A DNA stretch of 38,350 bases from the NCBI GenBank assembly GCA_902806435.1, contig CADCWO010000182.1, positions 1 to 38,350 of the forward strand, read 5' to 3'. The position numbers were made by a program, and so were the translations under genes. Below the pieces are notes generated by a model. It saw nothing but the letters and a program-made list of their open reading frames with translations. It had not been told where the DNA came from and ran no database searches. Source of the DNA: an uncultured Synechococcales cyanobacterium. Its GTDB lineage: Bacteria > Cyanobacteriota > Cyanobacteriia > Thermosynechococcales > Thermosynechococcaceae. This document shows, one piece after another, positions 9,498 through 36,208 of this stretch (position 1 is its first letter; the number at the start of each line of letters is the position of its first letter).

Positions 9498-9883
9498 GCC
9501 GTTAACTCTTTAACTATGGCTTCTTGACTATCTCAGGCTGGCGGAATATCACCAATTTACCCCCATCATTACCCCAATATTTTTGGTAGTGGCCAAGCAT
9601 CAATTGGGCTGCCCAATCCTTGCCAGCCTTATACTGAGGGAAATACAAACTGCTAGCGGTTATAGGTGGAAATGTCGAGTGTCATATTATTTGACCACTT
9701 GCCAAATTAACTGGCAACTTATGATTTCACTGTAAAACCTTTGTATTATAAGGTTTTAATTTTTTCTAGGATGTTGGTTAAATCCTATGAGACCCTTTCC
9801 TCAAAAACTTTTCTACCTTTTTGTCCTGTACTGAGCAGTTTGGTAGCCTAAGCGAGTCTTGCAAGATGAGGAAATAGCCGCTC
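9498..9883. other. Intergenic region without a gene
   Basis: 386 bases between the glycosyltransferase start and the IS630 remnant. Apart from a terminator-like hairpin (listed separately) and a short palindrome ATTGGGC-T-GCCCAAT at 9603-9617, nothing recognisable is present. Confidence 0.5.
9734..9766 (+). terminator. Hairpin plus T-tract, terminator-like, with no gene to serve
   Basis: AAAACCTT (9734-9741) pairs with AAGGTTTT (9750-9757) over an 8-base loop and is followed by AATTTTTTC. This is the form of a Rho-independent terminator on the plus strand, but no plus-strand gene lies upstream. It could be left over from a lost gene or protect the IS630 fragment from readthrough. The stem is AT-rich and weak. 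Confidence 0.35.
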
Positions 9884-33613: not shown

Positions 33614-34384
33614 ATGGAAAACTCTTTGCTAGTTGCTCAAATAACTGACCTGCACTTGTTTGCAGAAGTTGATAAGTAGATGTTTGGCTGTACAACGGCT
33701 GACACTTTTCGCTCAGTAATTGAACGTCTAAAACAACTGGAACCGCAACCAGATCTGCTACTGCTGACGGGGGACCTTTCCCAAGATGAAACTACTGCCT
33801 CGTACAAGCAGCTTCAGAATTTGCTTGTTCCCTTGAGCATTCCCGCTTACTGGTTGCCAGGAAATCATGACAGTCTGACTGTGATGGAACCGGTATTAAA
33901 CCAACCGCCAGTTTTCCCTGAAAAAACTTTTTCCGTCGGGGGATGGCAGTTTATCCTTCTCAGCTCTTTAGTACCCGGATGCGTCTATGGTGAGCTTTCG
34001 CAAGCTAGCTTGGCCTGGCTAGAGCAGCAGCTACAACTTAGTACTCAACCGACGCTCGTTAGCCTGCATCATCCCCCTTGTTTCATTCACTCTGAATGGA
34101 TGGATGCGATCGCTCTCAAAAATCCAGCCGAATTTTTGGCTGTTATTGACCACTATCCTCAGGTCAAGCTCGTTGTATTTGGTCATATTCATCAAGCCTT
34201 TGATCAGGAACGCCAGGGTGTGCGTTACTTGGGTTCCCCTTCCACCTGCGTGCAGTTTCAACCTGAAACCCAGGAGTTTGTCATTGATTCAATTCAACCA
34301 GGATTCAGACTTTTAGCGTTATCGCCAGACGGTAGTTACGAAACGAAAATCGAGCGAGTAGGCAGCACTGAATCATTTCACTGA
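33614..34384 (+). pseudogene. CpdA-like metallophosphoesterase interrupted by an in-frame TAG
   Basis: Translation from ATG 33614 gives MENSLLVAQITDLHLFAEVD-K, then TAG (33677-33679), then MFGCTTADTFRSVIERLKQL to the C-terminus with no frameshift. Together this is a class III cyclic-nucleotide phosphodiesterase/calcineurin-like phosphoesterase of normal size (about 256 residues). Metal-site motifs are DLH (D12, H14) before the stop, and GDLSQD, GNHD, LHHPP and GHIHQ after it. TAG is one substitution from CAG. Restart at the ATG directly after the stop (33680) would give 234 residues but lose D12 and H14, two metal ligands, so it would probably be inactive. It is a recent pseudogene unless the stop is read through. 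Confidence 0.8.
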
Positions 34385-34481
34385 TCAGCCGGGACCTAGT
34401 GCTGCTTTGTGCTTGGCGTCTATGAGATTAGTGTTAAACCAGTTGGGGTATAGGGGTGTAAGGGCAGTCAGCTCATCTAGT

Positions 34482-34492
34482 GCTGACACTTC
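34482..34492 (+). repeat. 11-bp target-site duplication, left copy
   Basis: GCTGACACTTC, identical to 35631-35641, borders the IS4-family element. It corresponds to the aldo/keto reductase codons E-V-S-A on the minus strand. Confidence 0.9.
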
Positions 34493-35630
34493 TCAGTACA
34501 GGACAAAAAGCTGGAAATGATTGTAAGGAAAGGGTTTCATGAGATATAAACAACAATTCATGAAACCCAAATGTCTGAGATCAGCTTACTGCAATCAACC
34601 CTCAAATCTCACCTGCCTTGGCATGGTGCACGCCTGAATTGCCTAGCACAACTTTTGATTGCCCTGTTTCGCGTCAAAACAGTGAACTTAGCCGAGATTG
34701 CTACTGCCTTTATCGGACAAGCACAACAAGAGTCTCATTACAAACGGCTACAGCGCTTCTTCCGGCACTTTGAGGTAGATGCGACCCTTGTGGCTAAGGC
34801 AGTTGTGGCTTTGATGGGCTTTCCCTCGCCATGGGTTGTCTGCTTTGAGCGGACGCAGTGGCAGTTTGGACAAACAACCCATAATGTCCTCATGCTGGCA
34901 GTTGCCCATCAAGGAGTTGCCTTTCCCTTGCTGTGGACCCTGTTGCCTAAACGGGGTAACTCCAATACGACGGAACGAATTGATTTAGTAGCACGACTGC
35001 TGAAGCTGTTTGAGCGCCAGCAAATTGCTTATCTCACCGCAGACCGAGAGTTTGTCGGACGTGCTTGGATTAAGTATCTGCTCAAGCAACCCGTGCCATT
35101 TCGCCTCCGCATTCGCCAAAGTGACCGTTTAAGCAATGGCCGAGGCCAAGCCATCAAAGCAAGAGTGTTATTTGCAGACTTGCCACCCGAGCAGATGAGC
35201 ATCCTCCCCAAACGTCGTCGCTTGTGGGGCTACTGGGTCTACGTCGCAGCATTGCGTCTCAAGGACGGGCAACTGCTGGTTGTCGTCACATCCGAATCTC
35301 CTGAAGCTGCTATTGCAGATTATGCCAAGCGCTGGAACATTGAGACGCTTTTCGGTTGCCTTAAGCGTAGAGGCTTCTGCCTGGAATCAACCCATCTGGG
35401 TGATGCGCAGCGCCTCAGCAAACTCTTAGCTGTATTGACCCTGGCGCTGTGCTGGGCTTATCGAACCGGGGACTGGTTGACCCAACTCAAGCCCTTGAAG
35501 CTCAAAAAGCACGGTCACAAAGCTAGGAGTGTGTTTCGCTATGGCTTTGACTATCTGCGCCAAATGGTGCTCAATCTCACTGACAAACAAAGTTTACGCC
35601 TCTTGACTTTCAAGACGGTATCTGTACTTA
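34493..35630 (+). mobile_element. IS4-family insertion sequence, 1138 bp
   Basis: The ends are TCAGTACAG at 34493 and CTGTACTTA at 35630 (reverse complement TAAGTACAG, 8 of 9 matching). Direct repeats of 11 bp flank it, in the usual IS4-family range. It carries one transposase gene on the plus strand and an inverted repeat in its leader. The host gene reading frame on both sides proves the boundaries independently. Confidence 0.88.
34532..34568 (+). promoter_or_regulatory. Leader inverted repeat just before the transposase start
   Basis: GGGTTTCATGA (34532-34542) pairs perfectly with TCATGAAACCC (34558-34568), two bases before the ATG at 34571. In transcripts entering from outside, such a hairpin can block ribosome access, a known way for insertion sequences to avoid activation by readthrough. 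A G-rich AAGGAAAGGG overlaps the left arm. Confidence 0.5.
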
Positions 35631-35635
35631 GCTGA
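34571..35635 (+). CDS. IS4-family DDE transposase
   Basis: 354 residues, cut-and-paste transposase. The RNase H-like core shows CFERTQWQFGQ near 91-101, LTADREFVG with D158, and YAKRWNIETLFGCLK, the Y-(2)-R-(3)-E-(6)-K signature with E258. The first catalytic position, normally Asp in LxxDRTxW, is Glu (E93), which may reduce or abolish activity. The frame is otherwise complete with no premature stop. The TGA stop (35633-35635) lies beyond the element's right end, within the duplicated target sequence, so this copy's stop is probably supplied by the host gene. Whether other copies of this element carry Asp at 93 cannot be seen here. Confidence 0.9.
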   Translation: MSEISLLQSTLKSHLPWHGARLNCLAQLLIALFRVKTVNLAEIATAFIGQAQQESHYKRLQRFFRHFEVDATLVAKAVVALMGFPSPWVVCFERTQWQFGQTTHNVLMLAVAHQGVAFPLLWTLLPKRGNSNTTERIDLVARLLKLFERQQIAYLTADREFVGRAWIKYLLKQPVPFRLRIRQSDRLSNGRGQAIKARVLFADLPPEQMSILPKRRRLWGYWVYVAALRLKDGQLLVVVTSESPEAAIADYAKRWNIETLFGCLKRRGFCLESTHLGDAQRLSKLLAVLTLALCWAYRTGDWLTQLKPLKLKKHGHKARSVFRYGFDYLRQMVLNLTDKQSLRLLTFKTVSVLS

Positions 35636-35641
35636 CACTTC
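35631..35641 (+). repeat. 11-bp target-site duplication, right copy
   Basis: GCTGACACTTC, an exact copy of 34482-34492. Its third to fifth bases supply the TGA stop codon of the transposase frame. Confidence 0.9.
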
Positions 35642-35899
35642 CGCATCGCTCAGTTTTATTTCTGCAGCTTTCAGGTTGTCTTCAAGCTGATGGAGTTTGC
35701 TAGCCCCAACAATGATGCTGGAGACTACTGATTTACTGACGAGCCAAGCGATCGCAATCTGAGCCACGCTGGCATTACGGTGTTGGGCGATGGTCTCCGA
35801 CCGGCCTGCGGCCATCGCACGCATTTGTTCAACAACCATAAAGCCCAATTCTTTGTCAAACGGTAGCAGGTCAAAGCCAGAGAGCCGGTTGTCGCTGTC

Positions 35900-36112
35900 C
35901 TTGAAGGTTCGTGTCCCAGACCTATGAAAAGCGATTGCAATCGTCATCACTTCGCTCAGATACAAGCGGGAGTGGCATCGCCTTTCTCTTGGCATTGAGG
36001 GCAGTTGGGGCTGCTGTTGCTAATGCCGCTCGAAGTGAGTCGCAGAAGTCATCAATCTCACAAAAAATCTTGGTTACATCCAGGTGCGATACGATGGTGT
36101 CCGTAGTTGAGA
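35900..36112 (-). pseudogene. IS982-like transposase, N-terminal fragment, frameshifted
   Basis: On the minus strand one frame reads TKIFCEIDDFCDSLRAALAT and on to LNAKRK, the other continues with SRLYLSEVMTIAIAFHRSGT then RTFK. FCxIDDFC followed by LxLSEVMTIxIAFHxSGxRxFK is the N-terminal pattern of IS982-type transposases. A frameshift near 35990 separates the two halves, and the protein breaks off at about 35900 where aldo/keto reductase sequence begins. The DDE catalytic part is missing. The fusion makes an accidental 133-codon open frame (35594-35995) mixing transposase, reductase and IS4-element sequence; it should not be annotated as a gene. Confidence 0.6.
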
Positions 36113-36208
36113 CTTTGAGTATTAATCTTGAAATTAAGTCTCAGCTTTCTTTTTAGCGATTTCAAGTCCGTCGAGCTGACGTGACGTACGAATACGAAGT
36201 GTAAGTTC

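What the first reader, a model, noticed from the sequence alone, without database searches (positions are those of the whole stretch)
34385..35899. IS4-family insertion into an aldo/keto reductase, resolvable to the base
The minus-strand frame reads ...KLSDAEVSA, is broken by a 1138-bp element, and continues EVSALDELTALTPLYPNW to a stop. Deleting the element and one GCTGACACTTC copy restores an uninterrupted C-terminus. This gives the element's boundaries, its 11-bp target duplication and the pre-insertion gene without any database. The perfect duplication implies a recent event.
Basis: seen in the sequence. Interest (0 to 1): 0.55.

Follow-up and report, generated by a model that had tools for sequence, protein, structure and literature searches.

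The report
Jumping gene maimed by RNA-guided one
A bacterial jumping gene (IS4 type) sits in the leftover tail of a broken enzyme gene, and its right end carries the scar of a second jumping gene (IS110 type) that appears to be guided by RNA to the ends of the first; the first part is ordinary, the second adds a new case to a known behaviour.

Summary
In detail: an IS4-family element interrupts an aldo/keto-reductase (AKR) frame, and removing it restores a C-terminus that aligns through the join with two intact AKRs. Three corrections. (2) The AKR is only a C-terminal remnant, fused to an IS982 fragment at about 35897; which insertion came first is unknown. (3) 'Recent' is not shown: the nearest sister is 87% identical, a motif Asp is replaced by Glu, and the right end is not the element's own. 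Bases 35590-35623 are the right end of an IS110-family element that in this assembly is seen only inside the terminal repeat of this IS4 family (5 of 5 junctions). That IS110's left end spells both halves of the repeat in the layout of a bridge-RNA target loop (16 of 18 bases). Best reading: IS4 inserted, IS110 inserted in its right end, probably RNA-guided, then a deletion removed most of IS110 and the IS4 3' end. New member of a known kind.

The parts
34492..35631 (+). IS4-family element, 1140 bp, begins CTCAGTACAGG, ends CTGTACTTAG
   Evidence: Ends set by sister copies L002 and L003; transposase NF033591
34483..34491 (.). Left copy of 9-bp target duplication CTGACACTT
   Evidence: length set
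35632..35640 (.). Right copy of 9-bp target duplication CTGACACTT; it supplies the transposase stop codon TGA (35633-35635)
34492..34509 (+). Whole left terminal repeat CTCAGTACAGGACAAAAA
   Evidence: 0 mismatches
34571..35635 (+). IS4 transposase ORF, 354 aa; residue 93 (codon 34847-34849) is Glu where 5 of 5 other copies showing the motif have Asp; the last 14 or so residues are read from the IS110 remnant and beyond
35590..35623 (+). Right-end remnant of an IS110-family element, about 34 bp including its CT core at 35622-35623; 35590-35628 is 100% identical to the full copy on C21
35624..35631 (+). Outermost 8 bases of the original IS4 right terminal repeat, GTACTTAG
34385..34491 (-). AKR C-terminal remnant, part 3' of the insertion, with stop
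35641..35899 (-). AKR C-terminal remnant, part 5' of the insertion
35787..35819 (.). Short dispersed repeat inside the AKR remnant; overlaps an 8-residue insert (GRSETIAQ, 35783-35806, in the alignment with G041); the G053 alignment also shows an 8-residue gap close by
35897..36183 (-). 5' fragment of an IS982-family element (transposase N-terminal part, frames broken), fused to the AKR remnant
   Evidence: 70% DNA identity to G033 and 68% to a full IS982 copy on C41; NF033520 264.7 bits for the C41 copy

Best explanation
An IS4-family element transposed into an AKR gene or its remnant and made a 9-bp duplication (shown by both flanks and by sister copies). An IS110-family element then inserted between CT and GTACTTAG in the IS4 right terminal repeat (shown by the retained IS110 right end followed by the outer 8 bases of the repeat and the duplication). 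It was most likely steered there by a bridge RNA: its left end carries GTTTTGTCCT...AGTACAG, which fits the left and right halves of the IS4 repeat in the layout of a target-binding loop (sequence match shown; RNA and activity inferred). Later a deletion removed all but about 34 bp of the roughly 1.42-kb IS110 together with about 33 bp of the IS4 3' end (inferred from the junction, with sister L002 as yardstick). The result is a crippled IS4: left terminal repeat whole, right one cut to about 10 bp, transposase with a replaced motif Asp and a foreign C-terminus. It probably cannot move by itself now (inference).
For: The right 39 bp are identical to IS110 right ends on C21 and C48 and do not align to the right ends of sister copies L002 and L003. 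The full IS110 copy on C21 has DEDD_Tnp_IS110 and Transposase_20 domains and NF033542 at 243.7 bits, cut-off 140. The genome holds 4 matches to it at E up to 0.001; their 5 visible junctions all lie at the same point of the IS4 terminal repeat, left end inward, right end outward (on C45 only 11 bases of flank are held). Outer flanks of the three right junctions differ (CCAACAGAC on C21, ACCTTTTTC on C48, CTGACACTT here), so I infer at least three insertions. Guide test: in 14 IS110 elements with both ends read, own guide against own target scored 14.5 on average, mismatched pairs 12.27; 0 of 20,000 permutations did as well; this element scores 16 of 18 (core counted on each side), reached by 1 of 2,000 random targets with the core fixed. 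Left donor guide 9 of 10. The junction GACNGTATCT-GTACTNAG also occurs in 4 of 387 other genomes, 0 control hits.
Against: No RNA was measured, and Rfam gave no relevant match. The donor-guide control is modest (54 of 5,000 shuffles as good) and the right donor guide matches only 6 of 9. Two of the 14 elements (L101, L102) gave their best guide match at an odd spacing. On C21 the two sides of IS110 seem to belong to two IS4 copies: the outer flank CCAACAGAC is the duplication partner of the C178 copy, so that contig is rearranged or misassembled. In the 4 other genomes no IS4 body lies beside the junction, and for G155 the IS110 query itself gave no match, only the 30-bp end of the window element did. 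No undeleted ancestor of this copy is known, so the deletion step rests on one junction.
Confidence: 0.82

Rival explanations
1. Plain IS4 insertion with an 11-bp duplication; the right end is simply this element's own diverged end.
For: The 11-bp direct repeat is exact; the transposase ORF has full length.
Against: Sister copies have 9-bp duplications and a different right end that forms an 18-bp terminal repeat with the left one; the right 39 bp are 100% identical to IS110 right ends.
Confidence: 0.05
2. The chimeric element (IS4 body with IS110 right-end scar) was formed elsewhere and moved here already scarred, so the outer terminal bases suffice for transposition.
For: The duplication directly abuts the scarred end, which fits either order.
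Against: Only one scarred copy in this genome and none among 387 other genomes, where the IS4 body itself matched once (G067, 65%); the motif Asp is lost and the inner part of the right repeat is missing.
Confidence: 0.1
3. Assembly artefact: the right end was joined from reads of another IS110 right end.
For: Contigs C45 and C48 end in or next to IS110, and C21 looks inconsistent.
Against: The 9-bp duplication matches on both sides and the AKR frame continues across; the outer bases here read GTACTTAG, the other two right junctions GTACTAAG, so the join is not a copy of theirs.
Confidence: 0.05

Closest known systems
IS4 family (NCBIfam NF033591 transpos_IS4_2)
   Same: Transposase score over cut-off, Y-(2)-R-(3)-E-(6)-K spacing in YAKRWNIETLFGCLK, terminal repeats starting CT, 9-bp duplication
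   Different: This copy has lost the inner part of its right terminal repeat and its own C-terminus, and has Glu for a conserved Asp
IS110 family with bridge RNA, e.g. IS621 (PMC11208160, passages read)
   Same: IS110-type recombinase, long non-coding left end, CT core, left and right target guides that include the core
   Different: Target is the terminal repeat of an IS4-family element, not a REP element; the RNA here is predicted only
IS4321/IS5075 (IS1111 group) in terminal repeats of Tn21-family transposons; IS1383 in inverted repeats of IS1384 (titles seen in reference lists; papers not read)
   Same: An element of the IS110/IS1111 kind aims at the ends of another transposable element
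   Different: Other victims and target sequences; here the victim is an IS4-family element and the guide can be read beside its target

Membership tests
IS4 family | Transposase matches a curated IS4 model above cut-off | tested here: met
   NF033591 254.4 bits, cut-off 152
IS4 family | YREK spacing Y-(2)-R-(3)-E-(6)-K (motif recalled) | tested here: met
   YAKRWNIETLFGCLK in the ORF
IS4 family | Acidic triad complete (first Asp in the DRTxW motif; assignment recalled) | tested here: not met
   Glu at residue 93 in this copy; Asp in L002, L003, L004, L005/L006 (one copy) and G067. Bears on activity, not on ancestry
IS4 family | Terminal inverted repeats and fixed-length duplication | tested here: met
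   18-bp repeats and 9-bp duplications in sister copies L002 and L003; here the right repeat is cut to about 10 bp
IS110 family (source of the right-end scar) | DEDD and Transposase_20 domains | tested here: met
   for the full copy on C21
IS110 family (source of the right-end scar) | Insertion at a core dinucleotide without target duplication | tested here: inconclusive
   GTC-CT|IS110|CT-GTACT on C21, but the two sides there may come from different IS4 copies
IS110 family (source of the right-end scar) | Bridge RNA with target and donor guides | tested here: inconclusive
   Guide-target match strong, left donor guide 9 of 10, left end folds better than 199 of 200 shuffles; the RNA itself cannot be tested here
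Intact aldo/keto reductase gene as target | Full-length AKR domain | tested here: not met
   Only profile positions 222-289 of 291 remain

The most novel reading that the evidence does not exclude
A lineage of bridge-RNA-guided IS110 elements is dedicated, across several genera of this class, to the terminal repeats of an IS4-type transposon family; by landing in the repeat it disables its victim, and short right-end relics followed by GTACTTAG are fossils of past attacks. This would be a natural RNA-guided parasite of another transposon that also limits its spread.
Probability: 0.33. Interest if true: 0.55.

Novelty: new member of a known kind. Interest (0 to 1): 0.36.

Why it matters
The insertion itself is ordinary. 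The scar at its right end leads to an IS110 element whose guide sequence reads as the end of another transposon. That can be tested directly in a laboratory reporter and would document one mobile element using RNA guidance to exploit, and disable, another. It also shows that a direct repeat read in one copy can misplace element ends by chance matches, and that a perfect 9-bp duplication says little about age.

Tried and rejected
Rejected: 11-bp duplication and 1138-bp element. Rejected: recent insertion argued from a perfect duplication. Rejected: right end as a diverged native IS4 end.

Led nowhere: a DNA search with the right flank for an orthologous or empty AKR site in 57 relatives matched only the IS982 part and a dispersed repeat. 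In G053 an intact AKR lies beside a desaturase-like gene similar to the one right of the window's remnant, but both on one strand, whereas here they point apart, so I do not call it the same locus. Rfam gave one hit in the IS110 stretch, far below its gathering score and irrelevant. No PDB sequence matched sister transposase L002 up to E 10, so the catalytic role of the replaced Asp stays recalled. The left-junction pattern TTTTTGTCCTTGTAT gave 6 hits in other genomes, while the control pattern gave 9; I take the 6 as chance, also because no IS110 or IS4 transposase lay in their loci and by eye none continued as an IS110 left end. I do not claim that this pairing is absent from print.

Dropped before counting: in the guide test 52 loci were given, 48 gave a transposase match, 16 had both ends recognised by my patterns, 2 duplicates (L072, L099) were dropped, 14 were scored, this element included. 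Several of the 14 have similar targets, which raises the mismatched scores.

Full report
What is there. The exact repeat GCTGACACTTC stands at 34482-34492 and 35631-35641. Between the copies lies a 354-aa transposase ORF, 34571-35635, which matches the NCBIfam IS4-family model NF033591 with 254.4 bits against a cut-off of 152, and Pfam DDE_Tnp_1. On the minus strand the AKR frame is interrupted; leaving out the element and one duplication copy gives ...LSDAEVSALDELTALTPLYPNWFN... to a stop at 34385-34387. The joined fragment matches Pfam Aldo_ket_red and aligns straight through the join with two intact AKRs, 58 of 131 identical in G041 and 57 of 117 in G053. These two were the only ones of 57 other genomes with a match at E up to 1e-20.

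Ends and duplication. The genome of the window (G000, 278 contigs; the window is contig C182) holds several related copies, the best 87%, 83% and 82% identical over most of their length. Two have both ends assembled, L002 (C239) and L003 (C8), each 1141 bp, beginning CTCAGTACAGG or CTTAGTACAGG, ending CCTGTACTTAG, with duplications CTCACCGTT and CCCATCTAT. A third pair of flanks, CCAACAGAC, is seen on C178 and C21. By analogy the window element is 34492-35631, 1140 bp, with duplication CTGACACTT; the bases that stretch the repeat to 11 are the element's own last G and first C, matched by host bases. The transposase stop codon lies in the right duplication copy.

The right end is foreign. L002 and L003 end in TTTTTGTCCTGTACTTAG, the reverse complement of their left ends but for one variable base. 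The window element does not: from 35590 it reads 39 bp identical to sequences on C21 and C48. These are right ends of an IS110-family element; the full copy on C21 carries the DEDD and Transposase_20 domains and matches NF033542 with 243.7 bits, cut-off 140. On C21 it stands as TTTTTTTGTC-CT|TGTATG...GGTAT-CT|GTACTAAG, that is, within an IS4 terminal repeat. The genome holds 4 matches to this IS110 at E up to 0.001; their 5 visible junctions are all at this point of the repeat, right end outward. Outer flanks of the three right junctions differ, from which I infer at least three insertions. On C45 only 11 bases of the inner flank are held, and the IS110 left end is cut after 97 bp by another element that I recognise from recall as IS630-like.

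Guidance. [quoted passage not shown] The left end of this IS110 has GTTTTGTCCT-AAGGTCAGTTGAACCTGG-AGTACAG: 9 of 10 and 7 of 8 bases fit TTTTTGTCCT and CTGTACTA of the IS4 repeat. To test this I collected relatives by protein: 22 loci from named genomes and 29 from a search of 388 genomes, own included. With the C21 copy these are 52 loci; 48 gave a transposase match, 16 had both ends recognised, 14 remained after dropping two duplicates. Guides fit their own targets better than others' (means 14.5 and 12.27; 0 of 20,000 permutations as good), and this element scored 16 of 18, which 1 of 2,000 random targets reached. Two elements, L101 and L102, gave best matches at an odd spacing. The left donor guide matches 9 of 10 (54 of 5,000 shuffles as good), the right one 6 of 9. 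The left end folds with z -3.16. Rfam gave no relevant match. No RNA was observed, so guidance remains inferred.

How the scar arose. Left of 35590 the element runs as an IS4 to about its position 1099, where sister L002 continues with its own 3' end. So after IS110 (about 1.42 kb) landed in the right repeat, a deletion seems to have removed all but its last 34 bp or so and about 33 bp of the IS4 3' end. The retained order (IS110 right end, CT core, GTACTTAG, duplication) fits IS4 first, IS110 second, deletion third, unless the scarred element moved here whole. The transposase reads on into the remnant and ends in the duplication. It also has Glu (GAG, 34847-34849) where 5 of 5 other copies showing the motif have Asp; that this Asp is the first catalytic one is recalled. 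Against L002 there are 86 silent and 34 replacement codon differences, mostly at third positions, but only 3 differences in the first 79 bp; over the first 1100 alignment columns identity in windows of 100 swings from 76% to 97%, which suggests exchange between copies.

The AKR is a remnant. Its frame upstream of about 35897 is not AKR: 35897-36182 is 70% identical to DNA of G033 and 68% to C41, and the C41 element is IS982 (NF033520, 264.7 bits). The match ends near 36183, next to a possible IS982 terminal repeat (a weak 13-bp inverted match in the C41 copy). Only AKR profile positions 222-289 of 291 are left. Which came first, IS982 or IS4, cannot be told. Inside the remnant, 35787-35819 is a short dispersed repeat, 85-100% identical in a number of relatives and in four other places of this genome; it overlaps an 8-residue insert in the alignment with the intact AKR of G041, and the G053 alignment has an 8-residue gap close by.

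Wider occurrence. At E up to 1e-50 only G067 of 387 other genomes has a copy of the IS4, 65% identical, with similar ends. The IS110 is not found by DNA in 57 relatives at E up to 0.001, though 29 of 387 other genomes hold protein relatives, those listed being 42-53% identical. The junction GAC-N-GTATCT-GTACT-N-AG occurs in 4 of 387 other genomes (G080, G155, G176, G293) with no control hit, and the DNA beyond differs between the four. In three of them (G080, G176, G293) DNA to the left matches this IS110's right end over 25 to about 350 bp, and G176 still has the last 64 transposase residues, 70% identical; in G155 the IS110 query gave no match and only the 30-bp end of the window element did. 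My pattern required the NAG, so agreement there is partly by construction, and no IS4 body lies beside any of the four in the 6-kb stretches examined.

Comparison. Elements of this kind that aim at the ends of other transposons are known: IS4321/IS5075 in Tn21-family repeats and IS1383 in IS1384 repeats, seen as titles in the reference lists of PMC11187229 and PMC11208160; those papers I did not read. This case differs in victim and target sequence and in that the guide can be read beside its target. I therefore rate it a new member of a known kind. The host is probably a cyanobacterium (inference from four GCGATCGC sites in the 3.3 kb and from named relatives of the IS110, part of which are cyanobacteria).

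Noticed in passing
window 33677-33679: In-frame TAG in a cyclic-AMP phosphodiesterase-like gene (frame from ATG 33614 to 34384); the ATG directly after it gives a 234-aa ORF that still matches NF008359 at 226 bits, cut-off 225. Possibly a decaying gene.
   Followed up: partly
window 9772-9835: Solitary left end of the same IS4 family, 63 bp, 83% identical, minus strand; no longer match follows: a relic or a short derivative.
   Followed up: no
window 35787-35819: Short dispersed repeat, 85-100% identical in relatives such as G008, G012, G017, G019 and G035 and in four other places of this genome, lying in frame in the AKR remnant.
   Followed up: partly
L020 (C21) and L027 (C178): The outer flank of the IS110 junction on C21 (CCAACAGAC) is the duplication partner of the C178 IS4 copy, while its inner flank is the right end of another IS4 copy (L004): recombination between IS110 copies or a misassembly.
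   Followed up: partly
L071 and L072: Two IS110 copies in Methylotenera mobilis 13 sit in sequences that look like integron attC sites (recalled motif), with guides that resemble them.
   Followed up: no
L021 (C45:3498-5099): Nested elements: IS110 left end cut at a TA by an apparent IS630-type element with an apparent IS3-type element further in (recognised from recall).
   Followed up: no
window 34492-35590: Identity to sister IS4 copy L002 is 94-97% near both ends and 76-91% in between: mosaic, suggesting exchange between copies.
   Followed up: partly
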